A stretch of DNA of 25,573 bases from a virus (IMGVR_UViG_3300025127_000241:1-25573); one strand, 5' to 3'. Positions 1-25,573 are shown, counted from the first letter of the stretch. Translations and numbers: made by a program. The notes: a model not told the origin generated them from the letters alone.

Positions 1-3000
1 CAAACGAACCAGTTGAGGTTGATGAACCACTTACATTAGCAAATGTTCCATCTGAGTTAATAATAGTTGGATTACTATAAGATCCTAATGTAACTTTATT
101 ATCACTAAATGCCTCAATAATAGGCATTCCAGAAATTGTACTTACACTAAATAAACTACCAGTCATAATATTTGAAACATTAAATAATTCATGGTTTGAA
201 TTAGCAACAGAAAATAGTGTAGATCCAGTAGCTGATCCTGAAGCATTAATTGATATTTTACCAAAAGAACCTGTTGAAGTTGTTGAACCACTTATATGTC
301 CACTAGCAGTCACGTGTAAAACATTTTTTATAGAGTTACTTCCTAAATTTAAATCTTGTGTTGCTGTATGATTACCTAAATTATCACCACCAGCGACAGC
401 GGCTGCTAATGAAGCAGATACATCTGGTATATCAGGTATTGATAATGTGCCACCAATAACAGAAGCACCAGCAGTTTCCAACCTACCAAATGAACCAGTT
501 GATGTTGATGAACCACTTATTTTTGCATTAGCTCCTAAAGATACAACATCAGAAATAAAATGAGCTTGGTTTCTAAGAGATGTAAATCCAGTATTAGTAG
601 AAGCATATAATCGAAAAAGTTCATTGTTACCAGAATCTTTAAATATGTATCCCTCATTTGAATTTGTAGAAAAAACAGAGTAATAACTTTCTAAACCGTA
701 ATTATTTTTCCAACTAGATTGACCAAATCTTATCTTTGGTGTAGTTCCTAAACCATCTCCAAGATGTAAATCATCTCCAACTGCAGGAGCAGATAATCCA
801 TCATTTAGTGTTATTTCATTTGCAAATGTAGCATCTGTTGCGTTTACTCTACTTACATCAACTCTACTTGCTTCAACTCTTCCAAACGAACCAGTTGAGG
901 ATGCTGAACCACTTATTGTATTTTGTGAACCATCAGTTGCATTTGGTGATGAGCCTCCACCACCACCACCAGCAGCTAATGAAGCTGATGTAAAGTGACC
1001 ACCACCAACTTCTATAACACCAAATGAACCAGTTGAGGTTGATGAGCCACTTACACTTCCAACAACTTCTAAAGCAACACCTGGAGTTGTTGTGTTTATA
1101 CCTACTCTATTGTTTGCAGCATCTGTTGCTAAAATTTCTGCTCCATTATCAGCCATCACATGAAAATCAACATTTTCATTTGTATTATTTATAATAATTT
1201 TACCAGCGCTCGCTTCATATTTTATCGCTGATTTTCCACCAGCAACTAAATTTACTTTATTAGCATCGAATAATAAGTGAGTATCTGTATCTCCATTGTG
1301 AATTAATTTTACCTCATCAGTACCACCACCGCCACCAATAAAGATATTCTGACCTTGTACTAAAAAATCTCCACTCGCAGTAACTTCTTCATTACCAAAA
1401 TCTATACTAAGTACATCTGTATTATCACTACCTCTTCTAAATTTAAAATTATTATTAGCATCCGATGTTTTTATATAACCTACAGTACCAGACTGACCTA
1501 AAGCTAGAAAATCACTAAAGTTATCATCAGATAATCTTAATTGAGCAAAAGAGGAATTTATATTAACTTGACCATTTGCAATTACAGCACCAAACGAACC
1601 AGTTGAGGTTGCTGAACCACTTATGAGATTTGAACCACCACCTTGAAAAGAACCACTAATACCAGCCGCAGTAAATGAACCACCACCACCACCACCAGCT
1701 TCAGCCTCTTCAACAGTTATCCTAGCTGCTAATGAAGCCGATACAGAGGTAAATGAACCGCTTATTCCTGTAGCGGTAAATGAACTACCGCCGCCTCCAC
1801 CGCCGCTTCCAAATCCAGCAGCAGCAACTGATGCTGATATGTTAGCATAGAATCCGAATGAAGCGGTTGAGTTAGATGAGCCTGAAATATTTAAGTCTGT
1901 GTTATCCCACTCTATATATTGGTTTGCATCTCCTAATTTAAAATGTCCTGTGTTATACCAATAGTTGTTGGAGTTTCTAACCAAACCATCACCAGTTGTT
2001 AGGAATGATTCGTTTCCATCCTCATCTACAGTTATGAATCCTATGTCTACTATTGAACCATCTGATCCCGTGACGAATCTAGACATGTTTGATGAACCGC
2101 TTACGGGTATTCCATTACTATTTTTACCGACATACATACTACCGCTTGGTCCCGTATTTATATCCATTTGACCAAAATAAGAACCTGTTGTAACTGTTAA
2201 ATCCCCTCTAACCTTTAATGTGTTCAAGCCAGCGTCATATCTGACGTGTTGATTAGCACTACCTAATTTGAAAAAGTTGTTATTATACCAATAGTTATTA
2301 GGATCAGAATATAAACCATCACCTATTCCTGTTATTACTGTTACACCATTATCATCAATTGTGGTAAATCCTAAATCTATTATTGAACCATCGCTAGTAG
2401 TTACATATCTAGAAGCATTCGCAGATCCGCTAACCTCTATACCACCTGAATACTTACCAATAAACATTTTACTCTCATTGGTATCTATGTATAGCTCTCC
2501 TTCTAATGAACCTGATGGAATAAATAAAGAACCTGTAAATGAGTGTCTGTCATCAGAACTATCACCGAAATTTGTTGAACCACTTACATCTATGGTTGTT
2601 ATGTTTGTAACGGATGATGAGACTATAAATTTTTTCGCTTCTACAATTTCAGCCTCAACTCTTCCAAATGAACCTGTTGAGGTTGCTGAACCGCTTATTA
2701 CATTTAAACTACCAGATAAAGCTCCCTGCCACGAACCACTTACAACCGTTGGACTTAATCCAGCAGCAAAACCTGATGAACCACTGACAGCAGCTGCTGT
2801 TAAACTTCTTAAAAATACTGCATTTTCGCCTAACGAACCGCTTATATCTGTAGCTATCTGAGCTGAACTGCTTAATAATGTATTACTTAATTCATCTTCA
2901 GCGGTAGTAATTCTGGAGGAAAATGAACTAGAAACCAGCCCAATATCAGAAACCGACATATCTGAAATTCTTAGATTACCAAAAGAACCTGTTGAAGTTG

Positions 3001-3391
3001 ATGAACCACTTATTTTTGTTGCTTTTGGAAATAAAACATTATCAGAATCAGCATCGGTTTGAAAAAGAATATCACCATCATTATCTTCAACCTTAAAATC
3101 AATATTGTTTCCACCTGGATTAATCGTAACATGATGAGGAGAACTACTATCTTTTTCTACATCAACAAATGTGATATCACCTGCTTTAAATCGAATCCTA
3201 TTATTAGTAAAATTAATTCGTGTATCTGTGTCATCTTTATGTTGAATGGTTGAATCAACAAATAAATCTCCATTTATTGTCGCATCCCCATCTACTGTTG
3301 CATCTCCACCTATTGTTATATCGCCACTTACATCTGAGGTGCTTGATTCTACTCTACTAAATGAACCAGTAGATACTGATGAACCGCTAAT
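1..3391 (-). repeat. Ten dispersed copies of the ISGSxxSTGSFG module in the fibre gene
   Basis: On the plus strand the repeat reads approximately CCAAAYGAACCWGTTGARG followed by TTGMTGAACCRCTTA. Copies lie at about 1-33, 261-295, 486-520, 882-915, 1020-1053, 1590-1624, 1853-1889, 2663-2698, 2979-3014 and 3355-3391, with irregular spacing. The encoded peptide is kept (ISGSSTSTGSFG, ISGSATSTGSFG, ISGSASSTGSFG and so on) while codons drift. The copies at 1853 (STASFG) and 3355 (STGSFS) are the most diverged. All copies are in the reading frame of the fibre gene, so these are protein repeats, not an array of non-coding units. Confidence 0.9.
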
Positions 3392-4027
3392 TTTACCTAA
3401 ATTATCTATTGTTAAATTTGAACTTGATACAGTTAAAGAGCCGGTAAACTGATGTGTATCATCTAAAGTATCTCCAAATATAGTTGAACCACTGCTGAAC
3501 GATTGAGTCATATGAGTTATTGATGACGAAACTATGTAGGTTTCAGCTATTATGTTTCCTTCTACTGTTACATCACCTGTGGTTTTTATGGTATCAAATA
3601 TTACATTATCAGTAGTTCCTAAACTCTGAACAGTTGAGAAATCATTTATTAGTGATGAAGCTGTTGTCTCTGTATCGGTTACCCTTACAGAAAAACTCCC
3701 ACTATCCACCTGTAAAGCATCAACATTAGCCTCCTCAGTTGTCAATCTTGTAGAGATTGAACCGCTATCTGTGGTAATTCTTGTTGAGAAAGAACCGCTA
3801 TCGACTACTAATCCAGCTATGCTAGCAGTAGCATTAGTTGTTGATACACTAAATGAAGCGCTTGTGTCTGTAAAAGAACCGCTAATATCTGAGGCAATCT
3901 GAGCACTGCTACTCAACATTCCAACAAACGTGGTAGCGGTTAACGGACCAGTTACATCAAATGAACCGCTTACAGCAAAAGAACCTGTTAGATTAGGATT
4001 TAACTGTTTTGACTTAATTGTTGCCAT
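1..4027 (-). CDS. Giant repeat-built tail fibre/adhesin-like protein (3' end outside window)
   Basis: The frame opens at ATG 4027, directly after an in-frame TGA, and stays open to base 1, giving about 1342 visible residues with no stop; the C-terminus lies outside the window. The protein is low-complexity, rich in Ser, Gly, Thr and Ala, and built of modules: ten copies of an ISGSxxSTGSFG-type motif, a duplicated unit of about 100 residues ending in NNYWYN...FKLG, two HNGDTDT-type modules, two SSAQIAxDISGS modules, several SASLAA segments and four polyglycine hinges. This architecture is typical of distal fibres or adhesins of marine T4-like phages, whose C-termini often carry a receptor-binding or chaperone domain; that part cannot be seen here. 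The start overlaps the end of the zinc-finger/NUMOD3-like gene by 28 bases, with a purine-rich AAGAGAG upstream as a possible ribosome binding site. Fibre identity is inferred from composition and position after the neck genes; the exact structural role is unknown. Confidence 0.8.
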   Translation of the reverse strand, partial: MATIKSKQLNPNLTGSFAVSGSFDVTGPLTATTFVGMLSSSAQIASDISGSFTDTSASFSVSTTNATASIAGLVVDSGSFSTRITTDSGSISTRLTTEEANVDALQVDSGSFSVRVTDTETTASSLINDFSTVQSLGTTDNVIFDTIKTTGDVTVEGNIIAETYIVSSSITHMTQSFSSGSTIFGDTLDDTHQFTGSLTVSSSNLTIDNLGKISGSSVSTGSFSRVESSTSDVSGDITIGGDATVDGDATINGDLFVDSTIQHKDDTDTRINFTNNRIRFKAGDITFVDVEKDSSSPHHVTINPGGNNIDFKVEDNDGDILFQTDADSDNVLFPKATKISGSSTSTGSFGNLRISDMSVSDIGLVSSSFSSRITTAEDELSNTLLSSSAQIATDISGSLGENAVFLRSLTAAAVSGSSGFAAGLSPTVVSGSWQGALSGSLNVISGSATSTGSFGRVEAEIVEAKKFIVSSSVTNITTIDVSGSTNFGDSSDDRHSFTGSLFIPSGSLEGELYIDTNESKMFIGKYSGGIEVSGSANASRYVTTSDGSIIDLGFTTIDDNGVTVITGIGDGLYSDPNNYWYNNNFFKLGSANQHVRYDAGLNTLKVRGDLTVTTGSYFGQMDINTGPSGSMYVGKNSNGIPVSGSSNMSRFVTGSDGSIVDIGFITVDEDGNESFLTTGDGLVRNSNNYWYNTGHFKLGDANQYIEWDNTDLNISGSSNSTASFGFYANISASVAAAGFGSGGGGGGSSFTATGISGSFTSVSASLAARITVEEAEAGGGGGGSFTAAGISGSFQGGGSNLISGSATSTGSFGAVIANGQVNINSSFAQLRLSDDNFSDFLALGQSGTVGYIKTSDANNNFKFRRGSDNTDVLSIDFGNEEVTASGDFLVQGQNIFIGGGGGTDEVKLIHNGDTDTHLLFDANKVNLVAGGKSAIKYEASAGKIIINNTNENVDFHVMADNGAEILATDAANNRVGINTTTPGVALEVVGSVSGSSTSTGSFGVIEVGGGHFTSASLAAGGGGGGSSPNATDGSQNTISGSASSTGSFGRVEASRVDVSRVNATDATFANEITLNDGLSAPAVGDDLHLGDGLGTTPKIRFGQSSWKNNYGLESYYSVFSTNSNEGYIFKDSGNNELFRLYASTNTGFTSLRNQAHFISDVVSLGANAKISGSSTSTGSFGRLETAGASVIGGTLSIPDIPDVSASLAAAVAGGDNLGNHTATQDLNLGSNSIKNVLHVTASGHISGSTTSTGSFGKISINASGSATGSTLFSVANSNHELFNVSNIMTGSLFSVSTISGMPIIEAFSDNKVTLGSYSNPTIINSDGTFANVSGSSTSTGSF
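1870..2510 (-). repeat. Diverged tandem duplication of a ~100-residue fibre unit
   Basis: Two successive segments of the fibre protein align along their length. The upstream unit (about 2510-2200) contains MFIGKYSGGIEVSGSA, SDGSIIDLGFTTIDDNG, GDGLYSDPNNYWYN and FKLGSANQHVRYD. The downstream unit (about 2180-1870) contains MYVGKNSNGIPVSGSS, SDGSIVDIGFITVDEDG, GDGLVRNSNNYWYN and FKLGDANQYIEWD. Order and spacing of the four blocks are preserved. The DNA has diverged clearly, so the duplication is not recent. Confidence 0.8.
3436..3510 (-). repeat. Module duplicated between the gp15-like gene and the fibre gene (copy 2)
   Basis: This is the partner of the segment at 4666-4740. The protein similarity extends upstream in both genes over IIAE(T/N)YI and a short Ser/Thr/Met stretch, to about 3556 here and 4788 in the other gene. 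Its location close to the fibre N-terminus makes it a plausible shared assembly or trimerisation motif. Confidence 0.8.
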
Positions 4028-7620: not shown

Positions 7621-9276
7621 TTAAACTTGGTTTATATCAGTAACGATAACTTTACCATAGAATTCGGTTCTTACCATCTTCTTAGCATAGCGAGTCATTA
7701 CACCTTTACGTGGAGTAAAGTTCTTTGGATCATAAACCAATGGTGTCATAATCATCGGCACATATGGAGCATATACAGCACCAGTTTCTAAGAAATTGCT
7801 TCCTCTGAAACCAACAAGTATAGTATTATCCAACATGTAAGGATTCTTATAAACTGTGTATCGGTTGTTGATTGAACCAACAGCTTCTACACCCATAGCG
7901 TATGTTTTACCCTCAGCATTACCTGTATTGGCAATATATCCACTTACAGATTCTAATATTGTAGCAGTTTCAGGTGAAACAACAACAAAGTTAGCACCAC
8001 CACGTAGTGTTTTCTGATGTATAGCGTTAGACACAGATTGTATCTTAATACCTAATGTTTGAAACCAAGATGGCTTGGTATAAGCATTAGAAGCACCACT
8101 TATCTCTGAGAAAGCAGGTGCGCCTGTTCCACTTCCATCATACTCGAATCCAACTTTAGCTGACCAGTATTCTGTCTTAGCACTAGCATTTATCTTTAAC
8201 ATATCTAGGATTTCTAAATCGATTTCCATAGCGATGTATTCACTTAACATAGCAGTTAATTCAGCTTCTGCATCAACAGAGTGATAAGCGTTAAGGTCTT
8301 GAGCAAGCTCAGGAGTCCAAACAGCTTTCAACTTACGAGTCTTAGCAACGATAGCTTCACTCTTTAGTGATATGTCAATCTCTGGAATGTCAATATCCAA
8401 TTCAGGATTATTGTCAATCTGAGCTGCAGTAGCTTCAAAATCACCACGATTAGTAGCAACTGGAGCTTCATGATAATTAACAACTAAGTCAGCAGGTGCT
8501 GCAGCTGTATCTTTCCTTGCAATAAAGGAAACTTCTGTTTCAGCAGCATTTAGTGTTGTATAAGCTGGAAAGAATTCATCAAAACCTGAACCAGAAACTT
8601 CCCATGCTCTAATACCTTCTAAATCAGGTCTTGTAAAGGCAGCTGTAGAAACAGTTAGCTTTATTAAACCATCATCAGCTAAATGTCCAGTAGCTACAGA
8701 AGCAGATAAATCTGGTTCAAACTCAACATCTTTCCAAGTTACTGAACCGGAAATATAATTTCCTGAACTTGCAGCGGAAGCATGTATAGATTGAGCAGCA
8801 GTTGCTTTATCGTTAATTGAATATCCAAATTTACCAGCACCATACAAACCGCCCGTAGCATCTACGTTAGATCCAGAAGTATTACCAAATACATCTGAGT
8901 TCTCTTCGGTATTAGTTTGGTTAGCAGATCCATATTTGAAATCCAAAAAGAAAATTAGACCAGATGGTAGATTCATCGGCTGAACACTAACAAACTCTTG
9001 TGCTGATAATTCACCAAAGATTCTACGAACCAATGGTAAAGCAACACCAGACCATTCTTCTTTAGATCCACCAATACCAGTTTGAGAAGCCTCTTTAATT
9101 AACTGAGTAGCTTGGTTTTCTAAAAGAACAGCCATTCCTGTTTTCTTAGTGGAGTCATCGATTCCGTCTAATAATCCGGTTGGCTCCCATTTGCCGACTA
9201 ACTTACGAGTCTGCTTTAGGAGCTCTTGATGAGGGTTGTGACCACCCATCAAGTCGTTTATTTTTAAATCTGACAT
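7621..9276 (-). CDS. 23: Major capsid protein, gp23 family
   Basis: The 551-residue protein carries gp23 hallmarks: WEPTGLLDGI (about 30-39), MAVLLENQATQLIKEAS (about 48-64), VALPLVRRIFGELSAQEFVS and QPMNLPSGLIFFLDFKYGS. The C-terminal half contains the floor/axial part with KLKAVWTPELAQDLNAYH and the VVSPETATILESVSGY segment. T4 gp23 is about 521 residues and is cut after residue 65 by the prohead protease; here the matching site would be IKE|A after Glu62, giving a mature protein of about 489 residues. It forms the hexamers of the head shell. ATG 9276 has a GGGAG ribosome binding site. It follows the scaffold gene by 15 bases and is closed by a strong terminator, as expected for a highly expressed product. 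Confidence 0.95.
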   Translation of the reverse strand: MSDLKINDLMGGHNPHQELLKQTRKLVGKWEPTGLLDGIDDSTKKTGMAVLLENQATQLIKEASQTGIGGSKEEWSGVALPLVRRIFGELSAQEFVSVQPMNLPSGLIFFLDFKYGSANQTNTEENSDVFGNTSGSNVDATGGLYGAGKFGYSINDKATAAQSIHASAASSGNYISGSVTWKDVEFEPDLSASVATGHLADDGLIKLTVSTAAFTRPDLEGIRAWEVSGSGFDEFFPAYTTLNAAETEVSFIARKDTAAAPADLVVNYHEAPVATNRGDFEATAAQIDNNPELDIDIPEIDISLKSEAIVAKTRKLKAVWTPELAQDLNAYHSVDAEAELTAMLSEYIAMEIDLEILDMLKINASAKTEYWSAKVGFEYDGSGTGAPAFSEISGASNAYTKPSWFQTLGIKIQSVSNAIHQKTLRGGANFVVVSPETATILESVSGYIANTGNAEGKTYAMGVEAVGSINNRYTVYKNPYMLDNTILVGFRGSNFLETGAVYAPYVPMIMTPLVYDPKNFTPRKGVMTRYAKKMVRTEFYGKVIVTDINQV

Positions 9277-9291
9277 TATATGTCTCCCAAT

Positions 9292-10401
9292 TTAAATAAG
9301 GTTAGCCAACTTCTTAAACCTATCTCTCAAATCTGTGCTTTCAGAAATTACTTTCTTTTCAGATTTGGTAGATGCGACTGGCTTTGAAGCAGCTCCCTTA
9401 GATTCATTAATATTGTTTCTAGCATTAATAAAAGATTCACCAAGTGTGGAATAAACCAACTTGACTTCTCTTAGATTATTTGCTCTGTCGAATTGCTCAA
9501 CGACTTTCATCTTCTGTTCATTGTTAAGACCATACTTACGGAACAACTTGTTTGTAAATAATAGTTTAGCATTTAGCAGATTGACTTCATTTAGCTTTCC
9601 ACGAAGTGTTTCGATTACGGAACGATGTTCTTCAAGATCTGATTTAAGCTCTTTAACTTCATCCTTCTTTTCATCTTCTTCTTCTTCCTCTGAAAGTGCT
9701 TTAAGGACTTCATCAAGATCAATATCTTCATCCATATCATCTTCCTTATCCTCACCCTCTTTGAGTTTAGCTTTTCCGTCAGCTCCAACACCTGTTGTAT
9801 CGTTAGCTTTCTTATTGACTTTGTTATCACCCTTACCGATATCAGAAGAAACATCATTTTCATCCATCTTTTCATCTTCATCTTCTTTCTTAGCAATTTC
9901 GTCAATTTCAGATTCCAACTCTTTGATTACAGATTCTAAGTCAAGATCTTCATCCATATCATCTTCTTTTTCTTTCTTAGCTATCTCATCCATATCATCT
10001 TCATCTTCTTCCTCAGCGACTACAGGTGCGTACTTTACGCCATCTATTTCAATGATTTTGGATTCATCCATTTCTTCATCATCATCCATCTTCATTTCTT
10101 CCATGTCCTCATCATCATCCATCTTCATTTCTTCCATATCTTCATCGTCATCCATTTTCATATCATCCATTTTCATCTCATCCATATCATCATCTTCTTT
10201 TTCCTTCTTAGCGATATCATATACTTTGGAAACTTCGTTCTTTTCATCATCTTCATCTTCGATTTCATTCTGAATCTTCTGTGAAAGCATAGACTGTAGT
10301 TTAGGTGTGAAAGCCTCTTCTAAAGCCATCTTTGCATTTTCTAAAGCAGTCTCACGAACAGCTTTTGCGTCAGCAATTGCTTCTTTTAAGAGATCATCCA
10401 T
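9292..10401 (-). CDS. 22: Prohead core scaffold protein, gp22-like
   Basis: The 369-residue protein is strongly acidic. Its N-terminus MDDLLKEAIADAKA is helical and has an LKE|A motif that fits the gp21 cleavage rule. The centre (about 70-250) is a highly acidic, Met/Lys/Asp/Glu-rich region with short tandem repeats (DDDEDMEEMKM). The C-terminal third (LNEVNLLNAKLLFTNKLF ... VVEQFDRANNLREVKLVYS) is the recognisable gp22-type scaffold domain. Scaffold proteins form the internal core on which the capsid assembles and are then degraded by the prohead protease. T4 gp22 is about 269 residues; the additional length is the acidic repeat block. It lies directly before the capsid gene, with a good AGGAG site before ATG 10401 and a leader of about 120 bases holding an ATAAATAT element and a hairpin. 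Confidence 0.87.
   Translation of the reverse strand: MDDLLKEAIADAKAVRETALENAKMALEEAFTPKLQSMLSQKIQNEIEDEDDEKNEVSKVYDIAKKEKEDDDMDEMKMDDMKMDDDEDMEEMKMDDDEDMEEMKMDDDEEMDESKIIEIDGVKYAPVVAEEEDEDDMDEIAKKEKEDDMDEDLDLESVIKELESEIDEIAKKEDEDEKMDENDVSSDIGKGDNKVNKKANDTTGVGADGKAKLKEGEDKEDDMDEDIDLDEVLKALSEEEEEDEKKDEVKELKSDLEEHRSVIETLRGKLNEVNLLNAKLLFTNKLFRKYGLNNEQKMKVVEQFDRANNLREVKLVYSTLGESFINARNNINESKGAASKPVASTKSEKKVISESTDLRDRFKKLANLI
10060..10200 (-). repeat. Acidic tandem repeat in the scaffold gene
   Basis: In-frame short repeats encode EMKMDDDEDME-type units of about 11 residues (33 bases), three to four copies, with further DDMDE echoes on either side. On the plus strand they appear as repeated CATCCATCTTCATTTCTTCC blocks. 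Confidence 0.8.
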
Positions 10402-11437: not shown

Positions 11438-11764
11438 TTATTTCTGAAACTTATCATCTAAACCATCCTTACCATCTAAATAGTTATAAACTGATTGTAA
11501 GTAATCCATAGATTTTGTAAGTTTGGATTGAACCCAAGCAGGCATGCTAACCTCACCTCCTTTTCCCACATTATCAACTATGTTATAAATCATCTTAGCA
11601 TACTCCATAGATCTCTCTAATTGTTGTTTAGCCATCTTACCCTCATGGTCATCTGCTTCATAAACATTATACTTTTTCTTTCTATATAACATATCCATCT
11701 TATCAACATCTTTATCTACATAGTCTGCTGGGTTTTCTAATATTAAGTCTTTTAACTTTAACAT
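11438..11764 (-). CDS. Small conserved phage protein, putative prohead core component
   Basis: This 108-residue protein opens with MLKLKDLILE|NPADYV, again a short amphipathic leader with an (I/L)xE motif. The remainder (EGKMAKQQLERSMEYAKMIY ... MPAWVQSKLTKSMDYLQSVYNYLDG) is a helical domain I recognise as recurrent in marine T4-like phage genomes near the protease and capsid genes, without assigned function. Its ATG at 11764 overlaps the preceding stop by one base (TAATG), so it is translationally coupled. Position between terminase/portal and capsid genes is where T4 carries the small core proteins gp67 and gp68, but I see no sequence proof of homology with those. Confidence 0.75.
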   Translation of the reverse strand: MLKLKDLILENPADYVDKDVDKMDMLYRKKKYNVYEADDHEGKMAKQQLERSMEYAKMIYNIVDNVGKGGEVSMPAWVQSKLTKSMDYLQSVYNYLDGKDGLDDKFQK

Positions 11765-12744
11765 TACATACCTCTCGATGATTTTACAAACTTAAATGCT
11801 ATATTTGACATTCCCACAATCGATAACTTTGAAAATTTCTTTTTATTAGCAGTGTTTATAGCATCATAAACCTGAGTTATAGCGGAAGCCGTATATGTAT
11901 CAACCTTCATCTTTCTACCCAACTTAGGATCTTTTACCGATGAGTATCCTTTCTTTAAAACATTCCTTAAATCTTTAATAACCTGAGGATCTTTCATTTC
12001 ATTGAGATCACCATTCTTTTTCTTTTTCAAAAGATGTGGTCCCGCTGGTTGTTCTCCGAGGTTTCCATCTATACCATAACCACAGGTTCCCTCTTGTAAT
12101 GCTTTTTTAGCCTTTATGGAAAACTCTACCCAATGTTTTTTATAGAGTTTCATCAGCTCTAAAGCTTTTTTCTTATCTGTTTTTCCGATATCCTTAATTG
12201 AAGTTTTTATATCATTATCAAACTTATTCATATGGTTGTTAGCTATTTTATTAATCATAGAGGAAACTTCATTTACGGATTCTTTCATCCTATCTTTTAC
12301 TTTTTCAATTGGAGTTATATTTTTAGTAAACATATCTGCCAATCCCCTATCCTTTCTCGATATTTTATTTCTTAATTCTTTTAATCTATTTATAACAACT
12401 GATAATTTATATTTTTCACCTCTGTTATCGGTATAACTAAACTCTTTACTACCAGTTCTAGCATCTCTTTCAACAGCGTTTTTAATTCTGCTATATTGTT
12501 GGTCAAAATATTTTCTTATCTGTTGTATTCTTCTGTTAGCCATCCTATCACCGATACTAACCTCTCTGACCTTTTTAGGTAGATCATCATGCTTTGTTTG
12601 AGCATACTTCTTAACAGACTTTTTACTCATTGATTTTGCAGCATCCCTAGCCTTTTTGGAAAACTTTGACGCTGGAGCATCTCCCTTTTGAATAGCCCTA
12701 ACTATACCCATAAATTTTTGTTGTTGTTTAGAAGCTGCAGGCAT
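11764..12744 (-). CDS. Basic conserved protein with DUF3008-like N-terminus
   Basis: About 326 residues from ATG 12744. The N-terminus MPAASKQQQKFMGIVRAIQK ... AAKSMSKKSVKKYAQTKH matches the DUF3008-type pattern, which normally begins with MPA; this is why I chose 12744 over the in-frame ATG at 12798, which would overlap the preceding gene by 53 bases. A Lys-rich helical middle (about 70-230) leads to CGYGIDGNLGEQPAGPHLLK and a C-terminal DTYTASAITQVYDAINTANK module, both recurrent in marine phage structural regions. It is strongly basic, suggesting nucleic-acid contact inside the head. No catalytic motif is visible. If 12798 were used the protein would begin MLLNE|SIV, which also fits the leader rule of its neighbours. 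Function is unknown. Confidence 0.75.
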   Translation of the reverse strand: MPAASKQQQKFMGIVRAIQKGDAPASKFSKKARDAAKSMSKKSVKKYAQTKHDDLPKKVREVSIGDRMANRRIQQIRKYFDQQYSRIKNAVERDARTGSKEFSYTDNRGEKYKLSVVINRLKELRNKISRKDRGLADMFTKNITPIEKVKDRMKESVNEVSSMINKIANNHMNKFDNDIKTSIKDIGKTDKKKALELMKLYKKHWVEFSIKAKKALQEGTCGYGIDGNLGEQPAGPHLLKKKKNGDLNEMKDPQVIKDLRNVLKKGYSSVKDPKLGRKMKVDTYTASAITQVYDAINTANKKKFSKLSIVGMSNIAFKFVKSSRGM

Positions 12745-12745
12745 T

Positions 12746-13033
12746 TTAGAAAGCCATGTATATGTCGTGATAGTTACTATACTTTCGTTTAGCAGCATCC
12801 ATCAACATACCGTCTAATTTATTTCTAGCGGCCATCATTTCATTCATTTGACGAAACATATCATGTAATACCCTAATTGCCTCATATCCCTTTACCAAAC
12901 TTTTCAATTTCATCTCTTTAGCCAACATAATTCTAGCCCCATTATGGTCATTGTAATCCGTAAGTTTTGAAATTTTGCTAATTATTCTTTTGTCCAACTC
13001 GACCTTTTCTAACAATAAGTCCGTTAACTTCAT
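12746..13033 (-). CDS. Small putative prohead core protein
   Basis: This 95-residue helical protein begins MKLTDLLLE|KVELDKRI, the clearest of the capsid-targeting-like leaders in this region with an LLE site at residues 7-9. The rest is charged and Met-rich (FRQMNEMMAARNKLDGMLMD) with no recognisable domain. It follows the protease gene by three bases and ends one base before the ATG of the next gene. Location next to the prohead protease and small size are like those of T4 core proteins; identity with any T4 gene is not shown. Confidence 0.7.
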   Translation of the reverse strand: MKLTDLLLEKVELDKRIISKISKLTDYNDHNGARIMLAKEMKLKSLVKGYEAIRVLHDMFRQMNEMMAARNKLDGMLMDAAKRKYSNYHDIYMAF

Positions 13034-20626: not shown

Positions 20627-23600
20627 TTACCTCGCAAACTTTAATATTCCTAATATCTGATTAACAGGAGCAAAAGCGCCTGTATACTTATATAACTTTC
20701 CTTTAAACATAAATGTGACTCCTTCGCTCGGTATGATAGCATCAAATCCACCCAAAGCGTTTAATCTGTCTAATTGTGTTTTCAGTAATCCCATCTGTTT
20801 TGGATCTTTTGCTTTCCTTATACCATCGATAGCCTTAGTTAAATCTTTTTTTATCTTCTGTACAGCTTTATCAGGATTAGCTGCTATAAAATCTTTTATG
20901 TTTTTTAATACCTCAGCACCTAATTCAAAGAAAAGCACCTCCCAATCCCTTATGTGTTTTTTCTGTAACTTAGCGTGATCCATTTTATCGGTTGTTAAAA
21001 CCCATTCTAAAAATTTTGGATAATCCTTCAAATCCTTTTTTATCTGTGGTATCTTATATGACTTATCAAAGAATGCCCATCTTTTTAAAAGTCCACCCAT
21101 AACATTACTCGTTACATTTGGATTATCTGTTTGTTTTCCTGCGTTATAAATATACTCATACCAATAAGCCTGATGATAGTCTGCTAATGTGTCTGTATCT
21201 TTTAATCCATATAGTTTTTGTAATTTATTCAATTTACCTAAAAAGTAATTTTGTCTAGCAGAAAAGTCCTTTACCTTCGGTAATGAAGAAACAAATGGTT
21301 TTGTTATGCTATAGGTTTTTTGAACATTTTGATTTATTTGTTTTATCATACCAGCTAACATTCTAGCACTACCCCTATCCTGTGAAACAGGTGAACCATC
21401 TGCATCATACTCTATGGTGCCGTGAAACTGTAATAATGCTTTATCATAAGGTATTACATTTGCTGTTTTCGGATATATAACCTCTAACGACATAAACTTC
21501 TTACCCTCTGCAAATATTTTATCCTTTTGTTTTTGACTCAATCCTTTAATGGCTATCTGTAAATCTCTCATAGCGTATACAAAGGCTTTCTCTATATCAC
21601 CCCTACCAGCAAACATATTAGCGATACCCTTTATATCAGGTGCGTTTGCTCCAAAATTCTTAATATGTCCTTTATTACGAGCAGCTATGAGCTTTCCATT
21701 CTTCCAACTAATCATAATATTCTGACCATCGGTTTTTTCTGTAACAGCACCCTCACTGCTGAGATTGCCTTGTAGCGTATTAATAATTAGTGTTCTGAAA
21801 TCTGAAAATGTAAGATTTTTGTTGTCAAACGGATGACTTAAATGTCCGTATGCACCACCCATAAGCAGTAACTCCTTTCCTTTATTTCTTTGTGTTAAAA
21901 TATTTCTAGCATTAATACTCTCATAAAATGTATTTTTTGTAACCTCATATGAGTCACCATCAGCACCTGTTAACATCAAATCACCTATGATATTATCTAT
22001 AGCTGCCTCTGTTCCCATCCAATCAACTACTTGCCAACCTAAAGGTTCTACAACAGTTGTCATCCATTTCTTATAATTATTTATGGCACGTTTGGATCTT
22101 TTTTGTTGGCCATGATCTAAAAATGTTAAGGGAGCTGATACATAATGTTCCTCACCAACATTTCTTCTCTTATGAACATCATCAGCCCTCGCTACATTAT
22201 CCTTTGGGTCTATGGCTCTTTTATTAACAATGTAATCCAAAACCTTCCAACCTGCGCCACCATATATTGAGTTTATCCAATCCGTAGAATCCTTCTTATA
22301 CTTTTCTAAACTCCTATAGTAAGTTGATGGTCCATCATCTAAGTTTCCTTGCGGAGTTGATGAGGATTCTAGTAAAAACTCCTCTATGAGTTCATCTGTT
22401 AGGGTGTAGGTTTCAAACAACTTTTTAAAGCTATTTGTCATCATATCATAAATGGACTTATCATAATATCCAAAAGATTTTTTGAATAACTTCTGTCTCT
22501 TATCATCATCAATCTTAGGATCTCCTAAAATCTTTCTCATCTGTGTTCCGCTAACAGTGCCCGATTGCGGTGCTGTTATGAAATATCCATGCTTTTCAAA
22601 TCCAACCAAATCATTCTTATTCTTATTATAATCCTGATAGTATGATTTGCTACCATCCTTCTTAGTTCCCGATTTTAACCTACCAGCATCCTTCTCACCA
22701 AAAGCATAAACAACCGCTGTCTTATCCGAATTCAATTTCTTTAGAACATTCGTTGCTATGTATGGTGATTTTTCCATAACTATGCGATTTTTGGGAACGC
22801 CCATCTTTACAATATGTTTAACCTTTTCATTAAAATTCAAAGGATGCCGAGGTGGTTGTTTTATGTTGGATGTCGTTATGTAAACATCATCAAATTTTTT
22901 CTTTAGAAAATTATAGGTGGCTAAATGGCCTGAATGAAATGGTTGAAACCTACCACCATAAACCGCCACAGTTTTTGTAATTTTGTTCTCTTTCAAAAGG
23001 GTCGTATTATCCATATTATCAACTATGGAATTTACGAATTTTTTAGTATACAAGTCAAGACTTTCTTTTATTTTTTTATAACCGCTACCATAAGGAACTG
23101 ATGTGTTTCCTTTCCTCTTCATCTTCTTTACCATCTTACGGCTTGGTGATGGTAAGAATCCTTTAGGTGCACCAAACTCCTCATTCTTCTTTTTGGTTTT
23201 CTTTTTCATCTGATTGATGTAAGCCCTATAGACAGCGGCTTGTGAAGCCTTACCCATCTCCCTAGCTCTCTGTTCCATAGCTACAGCAGCTTGTATTTTA
23301 TGTGCATGAGATTTACCGCTGTTTCTAATTTTGCTGACTGATGCTTTTGCATCTTTGACTGTAGCAAACTTCAATCCCTTTATCGTACCCTTTGGATTCT
23401 CATCTGTGTATAAATCAGAATGAGACTTAGAACCCCTATGCTGTCCTTTCTTACGGGGCACCCTCGGTGCCTCATTCTTCATCAACTGTTTCATCTGTTT
23501 TTCTAAATCAAGAATCTTCAATTTTAATTTATAACTACCTGCCTGTGGCCCGAACCCACCATACTTTCTTATCAGCTCCATTCTTTTTCTATGTAACCTA

Positions 23601-23998
23601 CCGTACTTCAATTGGGTTTTTCTATCAACCTCACCCAAAAGAGAAAGTCCTATCAAAGCCATAGCCTTATCTCGTGGAGTCTGACCTTTGAATTTTTTGG
23701 CTACCTTTTTATAATTTTTCTTCATCATATCCGTAGCATCTTTAGCAGAGTTTCCAAATCTTTGAAGAAGAGCATGTATGTTTTTCTCTTCGGATTCATT
23801 TACCTTTTTTAAAATTCTGAATTTCAACGCAGGTCTGCCGTTGATGAGGAGATCACCATTATCGTTGTAATCTATCGATTTAACCACCACCTTTTTATTC
23901 TTAAACCTACCCATAAGGACGGTATCACCCACCTCTATGGGTATCTTAACATCTTCCTCTATGATTGGTTTTATAAGGCTATCTACTAATTTTTTCAT
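20627..23998 (-). CDS. Multidomain nucleotidyltransferase and ligase-like protein, possibly capsid-packaged
   Basis: The 1123-residue protein begins MKKLVDSLIKPIIEE|DVKIP, a capsid-targeting-like leader. Residues 21-63 (VGDTVLMGRFKNKKVVVKSI, INGRPALKFRI) resemble a KOW-type beta domain. Residues 85-320 are basic, with KGLKFATVKDAKASVSKIRN, seen in other marine phage proteins. Residues 341-500 form a cytidylyltransferase-like domain with GGRFQPFHSGH (348-358) and SGTQMR (483-488), as in NMN adenylyltransferases. Residues about 700-1123 carry ligase/nucleotidyltransferase motifs: EKTDG (Lys755 as possible adenylated lysine), ARNKG (773-777), FMSLEVIYP (835-843), EGVTF (1092-1096) and KLYKYTG (1101-1107), with a long helical insert of about 250 residues between the last two blocks and the first three. 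LLKE|N (334-338) and LLE|S (542-545) precede the two enzyme domains and also fit the protease rule. Substrates are unknown; NAD-related or RNA/DNA end-repair chemistry is possible. Confidence 0.82.
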   Translation of the reverse strand: MKKLVDSLIKPIIEEDVKIPIEVGDTVLMGRFKNKKVVVKSIDYNDNGDLLINGRPALKFRILKKVNESEEKNIHALLQRFGNSAKDATDMMKKNYKKVAKKFKGQTPRDKAMALIGLSLLGEVDRKTQLKYGRLHRKRMELIRKYGGFGPQAGSYKLKLKILDLEKQMKQLMKNEAPRVPRKKGQHRGSKSHSDLYTDENPKGTIKGLKFATVKDAKASVSKIRNSGKSHAHKIQAAVAMEQRAREMGKASQAAVYRAYINQMKKKTKKKNEEFGAPKGFLPSPSRKMVKKMKRKGNTSVPYGSGYKKIKESLDLYTKKFVNSIVDNMDNTTLLKENKITKTVAVYGGRFQPFHSGHLATYNFLKKKFDDVYITTSNIKQPPRHPLNFNEKVKHIVKMGVPKNRIVMEKSPYIATNVLKKLNSDKTAVVYAFGEKDAGRLKSGTKKDGSKSYYQDYNKNKNDLVGFEKHGYFITAPQSGTVSGTQMRKILGDPKIDDDKRQKLFKKSFGYYDKSIYDMMTNSFKKLFETYTLTDELIEEFLLESSSTPQGNLDDGPSTYYRSLEKYKKDSTDWINSIYGGAGWKVLDYIVNKRAIDPKDNVARADDVHKRRNVGEEHYVSAPLTFLDHGQQKRSKRAINNYKKWMTTVVEPLGWQVVDWMGTEAAIDNIIGDLMLTGADGDSYEVTKNTFYESINARNILTQRNKGKELLLMGGAYGHLSHPFDNKNLTFSDFRTLIINTLQGNLSSEGAVTEKTDGQNIMISWKNGKLIAARNKGHIKNFGANAPDIKGIANMFAGRGDIEKAFVYAMRDLQIAIKGLSQKQKDKIFAEGKKFMSLEVIYPKTANVIPYDKALLQFHGTIEYDADGSPVSQDRGSARMLAGMIKQINQNVQKTYSITKPFVSSLPKVKDFSARQNYFLGKLNKLQKLYGLKDTDTLADYHQAYWYEYIYNAGKQTDNPNVTSNVMGGLLKRWAFFDKSYKIPQIKKDLKDYPKFLEWVLTTDKMDHAKLQKKHIRDWEVLFFELGAEVLKNIKDFIAANPDKAVQKIKKDLTKAIDGIRKAKDPKQMGLLKTQLDRLNALGGFDAIIPSEGVTFMFKGKLYKYTGAFAPVNQILGILKFAR

Positions 23999-24054: not shown

Positions 24055-25573
24055 TTATACTTGGATGTAAACTAATTTACCTGCTGTACCAGCACCTCCG
24101 GCATTACCAGCTACGCCAGCTTCTGTTCCAGCACTTCCATTTGCTGCACCTCCTAGTCCTGCTGAACCAGCATTTCCACCAGCTACACTCTCTGTCTGAC
24201 CATTTGATGCATTAGGTGTGGTTGAACAGATAACAAGAACACCACCTGTACCTCCTCCACCGCCTCCACCGCCGGATCCACCTGCTCCTGATGGTTGTGA
24301 GGATATAGCACCAGCACCACCGGCTCCTCCAGCTGCAGCATCTGTTCCTATTATACAGAAAGTATTAGCATCACCAGCTGTTCCATTAGATCCTGCTACA
24401 GCACCACCGGAATCTCTAGGAACACCGCTAGTTCCACCGCCACCTGAACCAGCACCTGCTCCAGGAGTAAGTCTTGTAGCGGTATTGGTATCATTCATAA
24501 CATCCCTCATCATCTGTACGATATGTGGATCAATAACATCAATTCTTGTGGTGGCTGCTGATGAACCACCTGCTCCACCGGCTGTACCTGCTGCAGCATT
24601 TCCCGTATTAGTGTCTTTAGCAGTTTGCGCAGGTCCACCATTTCCACCGTTTCCACCGTTTCCACCTTTGGCTTGTATATTTCCTGTTCCTGCAATATTT
24701 CTTGCAAATATCAAAACAATTCCACCACCGCCTCCGGAACCACCTCCGCCGCCTCCTTGAGATCTTATACCCTCACTACTTGCATAACTGTATTGTCCAG
24801 AGCCACCAGCTCCACCTGCTTTTCCAACTATTCCTGGAGACAAAGTTCCGCCAGGTGCAGCTGCACCAGCAGTACCACCAGATCTCGCAACAGTTACAAT
24901 ACCACCATTATCACTTCCAAATGAATCATCCCCACCTCTTCCGGCTCCACCATTACCGGCATCACCACCATTATTATGAATAGTTCCATTATTAGTTAAA
25001 GTACCAAATACATATAATCTGAATCCGTTTGTTTTTAATGTCACACTTGTACTTACCGTTAGATCAAAAGTGTACCAATCACCCTGCATAGTCCATATAG
25101 CACCGGCTCTTGTACAAACTTGAGTTCCGTTTGCATCATTTATTTCATCATCATCCACCTTTGCACCAACACCATTTCCACCATCTGAAACTGTACAATT
25201 ATTTGTCTGTAATACAACCGTTCCATCACCACCGACACCGAACAATCTTGATTTCTCAATCAGATAATCAGCAGCGGTAATCGTACCAGCTGAGTTAAAT
25301 TCAATCATTGTGGTGTCTGTACCACCGGAATCCTTATTAACAATTCGCACGGCATCGGATGTCATAACCAACCTAGATTTTGAATTAGCCACCTGACCTA
25401 TTGTGGTTGTGACTCCAAATGATGCTACTGTAGCATTTGTTCCGCTCACATCCTCTATTATATCAACCGAATCGCTGTCTATCTGAACAAAGGTTGAATC
25501 ATTCTCATCAACACCTATCTTTGTCGTTGCGCCGAATGAGGCTTGAGTTTTGTTCGCAGCCACAACATCAACA
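24055..25573 (-). CDS. Glycine-rich fibre/adhesin-like protein (5' end outside window)
   Basis: The frame is open to the window edge. A GTG at 25563 could serve as a start, but residues before it (VDVV) continue a repeat, so I treat the gene as 5'-partial with about 505 visible residues. The N-terminal visible part has repeats of the form ASFGATTKIG ... SDSVDIIED / ASFGVTTTIG ... SDAVRIVNKD. Then comes a beta-rich domain (WTMQGDWYTFDLTVSTSVTL, FRLYVFGTLTNNGTIHNNGG). The last 300 residues are dominated by glycine clusters (GGGGGSGGGGGIVLIFARNI, GGNGGNGGNGG). Polyglycine clusters like these form sandwiches of left-handed glycine helices in some phage adhesins (T-even gp38 type); homology is not shown. 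No hairpin terminator is apparent after the stop. The likely role is host recognition at the tail tip or a fibre tip. Confidence 0.8.
   Translation of the reverse strand, partial: VDVVAANKTQASFGATTKIGVDENDSTFVQIDSDSVDIIEDVSGTNATVASFGVTTTIGQVANSKSRLVMTSDAVRIVNKDSGGTDTTMIEFNSAGTITAADYLIEKSRLFGVGGDGTVVLQTNNCTVSDGGNGVGAKVDDDEINDANGTQVCTRAGAIWTMQGDWYTFDLTVSTSVTLKTNGFRLYVFGTLTNNGTIHNNGGDAGNGGAGRGGDDSFGSDNGGIVTVARSGGTAGAAAPGGTLSPGIVGKAGGAGGSGQYSYASSEGIRSQGGGGGGSGGGGGIVLIFARNIAGTGNIQAKGGNGGNGGNGGPAQTAKDTNTGNAAAGTAGGAGGSSAATTRIDVIDPHIVQMMRDVMNDTNTATRLTPGAGAGSGGGGTSGVPRDSGGAVAGSNGTAGDANTFCIIGTDAAAGGAGGAGAISSQPSGAGGSGGGGGGGGTGGVLVICSTTPNASNGQTESVAGGNAGSAGLGGAANGSAGTEAGVAGNAGGAGTAGKLVYIQV

What the first reader, a model, noticed from the sequence alone, without database searches (positions are those of the whole stretch)
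20627..23998. A nucleotidyltransferase + ligase-like protein that may be packaged in the capsid and cut into parts
One 1123-residue protein combines a KOW-like domain, a basic region, an HxGH cytidylyltransferase-like domain (GGRFQPFHSGH, SGTQMR) and a ligase-type adenylation core (EKTDG, ARNKG, SLEVIYP, EGVTF, KLYK). Its N-terminus (KKLVDSLIKPIIEE|D) looks like the leaders of the core proteins in this operon, and (L/I)xE sites occur exactly before each enzyme domain (LLKE|N at 334-338, LLE|S at 542-545). Known: T4 Alt is a large enzyme packaged with such a leader and injected with the DNA. Inference: this is a packaged, ejected and possibly proteolytically separated enzyme set, joining nucleotide (NMN or similar) activation with covalent nucleotidyl transfer onto a nucleic-acid end or other acceptor.
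Basis: partly seen in the sequence, partly recalled or inferred. Interest (0 to 1): 0.85.

Follow-up and report, generated by a model that had tools for sequence, protein, structure and literature searches.

The report
Cut-up phage polyprotein of packaged enzymes
A marine T4-like virus appears to pack a string of interchangeable small proteins and enzymes, including an RNA-ligase-like and an NAD-synthesis-like one, as one long chain that its own head protease would cut into separate pieces to be injected into the host.

Summary
The 1123-aa ORF is real (minus strand, 20627-23998) and lies in a T4-type head-gene cluster. Its C-terminal core has two confidently modelled domains, NMN-adenylyltransferase-like (aa ~340-528) and RNA-ligase-like (aa ~714-1123, Lys755 in KTDG), joined by a poorly ordered linker. 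Added cassettes include CCA-adding enzyme, P-loop kinase, HD and an Ntn hydrolase. Cassette junctions carry the prohead-protease motif (hydrophobic)-x-E far above chance: 58/61 before the NMNAT-like domain (7.9 expected), 62/79 before another cassette (11.9 expected). The gp23 maturation site of these phages has the same motif. The Ntn cassette, whose catalytic Cys must be N-terminal, begins with Cys directly after hxE in 34 distinct sequences. Best reading: a head-packaged polyprotein cut by the gp21-type protease into free effectors, probably for RNA/NAD repair after injection. Cleavage, packaging and activity are inferred; no proteomics was available. I rate it a new variant of packaged 'polyvalent' proteins.

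The parts
23954..23998 (-). Leader, aa 1-15 (MKKLVDSLIKPIIEE|), T4-core-protein-like, ends in (I)xE sites
   Evidence: relatives have M..KLTEWLTKPFLEE| type leaders
23795..23953 (-). KOW-like cassette, aa 16-68, ends KKVNE|
   Evidence: Pfam KOW E 0.0018, below cutoff; 49 occurrences among 63 relatives, hxE at its start in 46
23630..23794 (-). MIK cassette, aa 69-123, ends LLGE|
   Evidence: shuffled in relatives, hxE at start 7/7
23471..23629 (-). basic linker cassette, aa 124-176 (pI 10.3), ends MKNE (not a strict hxE)
23180..23470 (-). SHS cassette (SHSDLYTDENPKGTI), aa 177-273, pI 10.6
   Evidence: found in 79 distinct upstream contexts, hxE at start in 62 vs 11.9 expected; also in cultured phages P-TIM68, Mosig, Bellamy
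23063..23179 (-). PSP cassette (PSPSRKMVKKMKRKGNTSVPYGSGYKKIKE|), aa 274-312, pI 10.4
22988..23062 (-). short segment aa 313-337 ending LLKE|N, directly before the NMNAT-like domain
   Evidence: hxE within a 9-aa window at this position in 58/61 relatives vs 7.9 expected
22412..22987 (-). NMN-adenylyltransferase-like domain, aa 338-529 (HSGH 355-358, SGTQMR 483-488)
   Evidence: PF01467 E 2.9e-9; phrog_395; AF2 pLDDT about 90; Foldseek NadM/NaMNAT E 2e-5
22367..22411 (-). site-rich segment aa 530-544 (KLFE|TYTLTDELIE|EFLLE|S)
   Evidence: low pLDDT
21860..22366 (-). variable middle cassette and linker, aa 545-713 (FYE|S at 691-694; KELLLM before the ligase)
   Evidence: low pLDDT; 35/63 relatives have hxE|GG here instead
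20630..21859 (-). RNA-ligase-like domain, aa 714-1123; Lys755 of KTDG encoded at 21734-21736; EG 1092-1093
   Evidence: AF2 pLDDT about 88; BFVD RNA ligase hits; invariant motif residues
13037..13645 (-). prohead protease, S77/gp21 type: the predicted cutter
   Evidence: PF03420 E 3.8e-29; phrog_207 E 4.9e-53
7621..9276 (-). major capsid protein gp23, site LIKE|A: motif yardstick
   Evidence: PF07068 E 2.9e-76; I[KDQ]E at the site in 53 of 57 MCPs
11764..12798 (-). second cassette protein of the same phage (DUF3008 cassette ...KKVRE| ... LNE|MKDP...)
   Evidence: PF11450 E 7e-7; cassettes re-joined at hxE in relatives

Best explanation
The gene encodes a head-packaged modular polyprotein. A leader and core-protein character would bring it into the prohead. 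The gp21-type protease would then cut after hydrophobic-x-Glu at the cassette junctions, releasing small basic cassettes, an NMN-adenylyltransferase-like enzyme and an RNA-ligase-like enzyme that enter the cell with the DNA. New cassettes are swapped in at the same sites, so each becomes a separate freed protein. The constant NMNAT-ligase pair, with the kinase, CCA-adding and HD cassettes of relatives, is most likely an RNA (tRNA) and NAD repair kit that acts before phage gene expression. SHOWN from sequence and models: cassette shuffling, hxE at junctions, both folds, intact motifs, protease gene present. INFERRED: packaging, cleavage, ejection, substrates.
For: Folds. Shuffling: 43 architectures in 63 relatives; permuted order in L152 and a ligase protein without NMNAT in LR756500. 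Junction motif: 58/61 vs 7.9 before NMNAT and 35/63 vs 2.1 before the ligase; 62/79 vs 11.9 before SHS, 27/36 of those in proteins without an NMNAT domain. Of 20 possible P1 residues only Glu stands out at homology breakpoints with meaningful numbers: 101 vs 34.4, null maximum 51 of 200 draws. The gp23 site of related phages is I[KDQ]E|[AS]. hxE is rare inside the ligase domain (0.35 of shuffles for strict (L/I)xE) and enriched in the linker between the domains (2.1x). Ntn cassette: Cys invariant in 47 sequences, model pLDDT 91.6 matching isopenicillin-N acyltransferase, penicillin V acylase and bile salt hydrolase (best E 6e-9), and Cys directly after hxE in 34 sequences. RNA-repair cassettes in relatives: CCA-adding enzyme (E 1.2e-32 to 1miv), AAA_33/Zeta kinase with a polynucleotide-kinase PHROG match, HD.
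Against: No virion proteomics or cleavage data. The family sequences are related, so counts overstate independence, and the shuffles do not correct for that. In 28/63 relatives, including the window, the residue before the ligase fold is Met (KELLLM|GG), with the nearest site about 20 aa upstream (FYE in the window). Some junctions (MKNE, KKNE) lack a strict hxE. hxE is not depleted inside the NMNAT domain (ratio 1.10). Profile comparison of the ligase with T4 Rnl1 is not significant (P 0.18), and no sequence library finds a ligase. The window's own protein carries no kinase, CCA or HD cassette.
Confidence: 0.68

Rival explanations
1. One uncut multidomain protein: hxE is a recombination scar or flexible hinge at cassette borders, not a protease site.
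For: Cassettes clearly recombine at these borders, and a short conserved border could guide recombination. Some borders (KKNE, MKNE) are not strict sites.
Against: The motif equals the gp23 maturation motif of the same phages. The Ntn cassette needs a free N-terminal Cys and has it exactly after hxE. Only Glu at P1 is clearly enriched. hxE is depleted in the ligase domain.
Confidence: 0.17
2. A late cytoplasmic enzyme, not packaged; its place in the head operon is incidental.
For: No direct evidence of packaging. T4 Rnl1, Rnl2 and Pnk act in the cytoplasm and are not packaged (general knowledge).
Against: Leader and hxE sites as in core proteins, contiguous with head genes; the SHS and WSD cassettes occur near the MCP gene in cultured P-TIM68.
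Confidence: 0.13
3. The ligase-like domain acts on DNA ends or transfers a nucleotide to another acceptor, perhaps using NAD+ so that the NMNAT-like domain recycles the NMN released.
For: The two domains are nearly always together (61 of 63 ligases directly follow NMNAT). NAD+-dependent ligases release NMN (general knowledge). The RNA-ligase assignment rests on fold and motifs only.
Against: The fold hits are RNA ligases. The domains can be permuted, and the ligase can occur in a protein without NMNAT. Relatives add the tRNA enzyme CCA-adding nucleotidyltransferase.
Confidence: 0.15
4. The NMNAT-like domain mainly restores NAD+ against NAD-depleting defences, independent of the ligase (compatible with the polyprotein reading).
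For: NMNAT fold. Phage NAD+ synthesis as a counter to NAD depletion is discussed in PMC9503650.
Against: Substrate untested; in 24 of 63 relatives the HxGH motif reads GPHH, which may change or abolish activity.
Confidence: 0.35

Closest known systems
Polyvalent proteins of phages and conjugative elements (Iyer et al. 2017, PMC5512222)
   Same: Many unrelated effector domains in one polypeptide, predicted to be delivered with the DNA and released by proteolysis
   Different: There, release is ascribed to embedded peptidase domains. Here the cutter would be the phage's own prohead protease acting at hxE punctuation, and the domain set (NMNAT, RNA ligase, CCA, P-loop kinase, Ntn) differs. The paper has no mention of cyanophages and names prohead protease only in a reference title
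T4 Alt and internal proteins IPI-III
   Same: Head-core location, removable N-terminal leader, gp21 cleavage, injection (PMC9958956)
   Different: T4 proteins are single genes from which one short N-terminal peptide is removed; here one chain would be cut at several sites into separate proteins
NadM/NMNAT adenylyltransferases
   Same: Rossmann fold, GRFQPFHxGH and SGTxxR motifs
   Different: No Nudix domain; embedded in a polyprotein; many relatives lack the first His (GPHH)
Phage RNA ligase 1 family (T4 RnlA, RM378 Rnl1)
   Same: Predicted fold, KxDG nucleotidyl motif, E..P.N.I..Y-type motif III and EG motif
   Different: No significant sequence-profile match; N-terminal GGxxGH(L/M) motif; would be freed from a polyprotein
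Giant-phage head maturation (SPN3US gp245, PMC10052503)
   Same: Prohead protease cuts many head and ejection proteins at a short motif ending in Glu (AXE)
   Different: Reported cuts remove propeptides; no release of several enzymes from one chain is described in the passages read

Membership tests
T4-type head-packaged core/internal protein | gene in the head cluster with gp20, gp21, gp23 and terminase | tested here: met
   S77 protease, Portal_T4, Gp23, Terminase_6N on the same strand
T4-type head-packaged core/internal protein | N-terminal leader ending in (L/I)xE | tested here: met
   IIE|E and IEE|D at aa 12-16; KLTE..FLxE| leaders in relatives
T4-type head-packaged core/internal protein | present in virions and injected | not testable with these tools
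   needs virion proteomics
Polyvalent proteins | several unrelated effector domains in one polypeptide, with variable architecture | tested here: met
   43 architectures in 63 relatives; Pfam domains of several superfamilies
Polyvalent proteins | embedded peptidase domain that releases the domains | tested here: not met
   no peptidase domain in the window protein or in the scanned relatives; the protease is a separate gp21 gene
NMN adenylyltransferase (NadM/NadR type) | HxGH and SGTxxR motifs on an NMNAT fold | tested here: met
   GPHH replaces HxGH in 24/63 relatives
NMN adenylyltransferase (NadM/NadR type) | NMN + ATP to NAD+ activity | not testable with these tools
   substrate unknown
RNA ligase 1 (Rnl1) | nucleotidyltransferase motifs I (KxDG), III, IV (EG), V (K) | tested here: met
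   K755-T-D-G, LEVIYP, EG 1092, K1104; motif residues invariant across the core alignments
RNA ligase 1 (Rnl1) | significant profile similarity to T4 Rnl1 | tested here: inconclusive
   hhalign P 0.18, but motifs I and III align; fold matches to viral RNA ligases E 7e-5 to 1e-3
KOW domain | Pfam KOW at the gathering score | tested here: not met
   18.5 bits vs 22.3

The most novel reading that the evidence does not exclude
Marine T4-like phages share an open cassette system. Any protein placed between prohead-protease sites of a head-packaged polyprotein is packaged, cut free and injected. One motif thus serves as both maturation site and shuffling joint, and phages reload their injected enzyme payload by swapping cassettes, here around a constant NMNAT plus RNA-ligase repair pair.
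Probability: 0.55. Interest if true: 0.9.

Novelty: new variant of a known kind. Interest (0 to 1): 0.8.

Why it matters
If true, one of the commonest phage groups of the ocean injects a changeable set of enzymes at the first moment of infection, and the cassettes can be listed from sequence alone by their bordering sites. It would link head maturation to counter-defence, explain many unannotated genes near capsid genes, and give a rule for finding injected effectors. The pre-made RNA/NAD repair kit is directly testable in cultured relatives.

Tried and rejected
Sequence searches for the ligase domain (Pfam, PHROGs, PDB) found no ligase; weak eS6 and other hits were judged chance. hhalign against T4 Rnl1 was not significant. 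PDB and Pfam sequence searches of the Ntn cassette found nothing useful; only the fold search did. I took the split ORFs in L028, L100 and L139 as probable frameshifts, not as evidence of separate genes. Raw BLAST endpoints were noisy, so I merged them and compared all 20 P1 residues. No paper on Mel-JY01 was found, and no virion proteomics for close relatives turned up. The genome-contig hits to cellular MAGs are probably phage contigs binned with bacteria, given the small contigs; this was not tested further.

Full report
WHAT IS THERE. The window is a 25,573-base IMG/VR virus record. The named ORF is intact on the minus strand, 20627-23998, 1123 aa, in a same-strand block with a T4-type terminase, portal, S77 prohead protease, major capsid protein gp23 and tail sheath stabiliser. 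By major capsid protein the nearest named cultured phages are Microcystis phage Mel-JY01 (51%) and Flavobacterium phages 'immuto' (49.5%).

THE TWO ENZYME DOMAINS. The sequence supports a cytidylyltransferase-like domain (PF01467 E 2.9e-9; phrog_395 E 4.4e-11). No library finds the ligase by sequence. An AlphaFold2 model of aa 331-1123 with 80 relatives gives two confident domains, aa ~340-528 and ~722-1123, and a low-confidence stretch between them, aa ~531-721. Foldseek against the PDB gives NMN/NaMN adenylyltransferases (best E 2e-5). Against viral models it gives full-length relatives and, for the second domain, phage and giant-virus RNA ligases (E 7e-5 to 1e-3, including Rhodothermus phage RM378 RNA ligase). 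The top 50 PDB hits were all adenylyltransferases of the NMNAT/PPAT type, so the ligase was not separately tested against solved structures. Motif I (E754-K755-T-D-G), LEVIYP, EG and the terminal K motif are kept across the core alignments. Profile comparison with T4 Rnl1 is not significant (P 0.18), although it lines up KxDG and the E..P.N.I..Y motif. I therefore call it RNA-ligase-like by fold and motif, not a proven Rnl1.

RELATIVES REVEAL CASSETTES. Viral contigs hold at least 561 relatives of the core. The C-terminal NMNAT-ligase core is constant; the upstream half is not. Scoring 21 signatures over 63 non-redundant proteins gave 43 architectures. Cassettes change order (KOW-kinase-SHS versus SHS-KOW-kinase). 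In L152 the ligase precedes the NMNAT, in L151 the KOW cassette sits between them, and LR756500 encodes a ligase-like protein without an NMNAT domain. Identified extra cassettes in relatives are a CCA-adding enzyme (PolyA_pol E 1e-30; 1miv E 1.2e-32), an AAA_33/Zeta-type P-loop kinase (also phrog_505 polynucleotide kinase E 2e-7) and an HD domain. L002, 85% identical in the core to the window, carries CCA and HD cassettes.

PUNCTUATION. At the border before the NMNAT domain, unrelated upstream cassettes end in hydrophobic-x-Glu (KKVNE|, KKLKE|, VKLME|, GMNE|, GIRE|, SIVE|). Counts are 58/61 against 7.9 expected from local shuffles; strict (L/I)xE gives 39 against 4.4. Before the ligase, E|GG occurs in 35/63 against 2.1. 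The SHS cassette, found in 79 distinct upstream contexts, has hxE at its start in 62 against 11.9 expected, including 27 of 36 in proteins without an NMNAT domain. In the stand-alone SHS genes inspected it simply starts with Met. Among all 20 P1 residues, only Glu is clearly enriched at homology breakpoints: 101 against 34.4, null maximum 51 in 200 draws ([LIVM]xC has a similar ratio but rests on one case). Strict (L/I)xE is depleted in the ligase domain (0.35 of shuffles) and enriched in the linker between the domains (2.1x), but not depleted in the NMNAT domain (1.10). The sequences are related, so these numbers overstate independence.

IS IT THE PROTEASE SITE? At the aligned gp23 maturation site of related phages, I[KDQ]E is found in 53 of 57 and LKE in one more; the window reads LIKE|A. 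The strongest point is the Ntn cassette of several relatives. Its first Cys is invariant in 47 sequences. Its model (pLDDT 91.6) matches isopenicillin-N acyltransferase, penicillin V acylase and bile salt hydrolases (best E 6e-9), enzymes whose nucleophile is an N-terminal Cys. In 34 distinct sequences with many different upstream cassettes this Cys directly follows hxE. Distant stand-alone genes mostly start with Met a few residues before the Cys, or MC, without it. Cutting exactly at hxE would create the active enzyme. Caveat: some enzymes of this class process themselves, but that would not require hxE.

A SECOND EXAMPLE. ORF 11764-12798 of the window behaves alike: its DUF3008 cassette ends KKV(K/R/S/T)E| before unrelated partners, and its last cassette starts after (V/L/I)(N/D)E|. 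In cultured Prochlorococcus phage P-TIM68 the protein two genes after the capsid gene carries the SHS and WSD cassettes with the same punctuation.

HOW IT MOST LIKELY WORKS. Shown: cassette shuffling, junction motif, the two folds, the protease gene. Inferred: the leader and basic cassettes place the chain in the prohead core; gp21-type protease cuts it; the pieces are retained with DNA and injected; NMNAT and ligase, with the kinase, CCA and HD cassettes of relatives, restore NAD+ and broken RNA. tRNA repair is the best substrate guess because CCA addition is tRNA-specific and phage RNA ligases with kinases repair cleaved tRNAs (PMC7824862, PMC9503650).

KNOWN OR NEW. T4 injects Alt and internal proteins after removal of one leader (PMC9958956). 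Polyvalent proteins combine many domains in one injected chain, with release ascribed to embedded peptidases (PMC5512222). Giant phages cut propeptides at AXE (PMC10052503). In the library searched I found no description of a prohead-protease-punctuated, cassette-shuffled polyprotein releasing several enzymes; most subscription journals are not in it. I rate it a new variant of a known kind.

Noticed in passing
window 11764-12798 (-): A second hxE-punctuated modular protein (DUF3008 cassette plus others) lies between the scaffold and protease genes; its cassettes are re-joined at the same motif in relatives.
   Followed up: partly
relatives L108, L109, L021, L024, L045 and loci L251-L329: An Ntn-hydrolase cassette (penicillin acylase/bile salt hydrolase fold) occurs in many phages; its substrate is unknown.
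   Followed up: partly
core alignment A2, NMNAT domain: 24 of 63 relatives read GRFQPFGPHH instead of GRFQPFHxGH, losing the first catalytic His while keeping the rest.
   Followed up: no
L059 aa 116-405 and L150: A conserved cassette with FHVGSAE..LSTFTAVDKG, without a significant Pfam or PHROG match; by eye it recalls an ADP-ribosyltransferase, untested.
   Followed up: no
L150:1081-1818: A possible ParB-like cassette (phrog_1033, E 0.02) upstream of the CCA cassette.
   Followed up: no
L136, L154 (core region): Extra sequence of unknown nature lies inside the core (between the NMNAT and ligase in L136, inside the ligase in L154); an intein or homing insert is possible.
   Followed up: no
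window 2-4027 (-) and 24055-25563 (-): A 1342-aa open-ended structural-looking ORF and a glycine-rich repeat ORF of 502 aa flank the head genes; probable tail-fibre or adhesin proteins.
   Followed up: no
window 9292-10401 (-): Acidic scaffold-like protein (DDDEDMEEMKM repeats) next to gp23; likely the gp22-type core.
   Followed up: no
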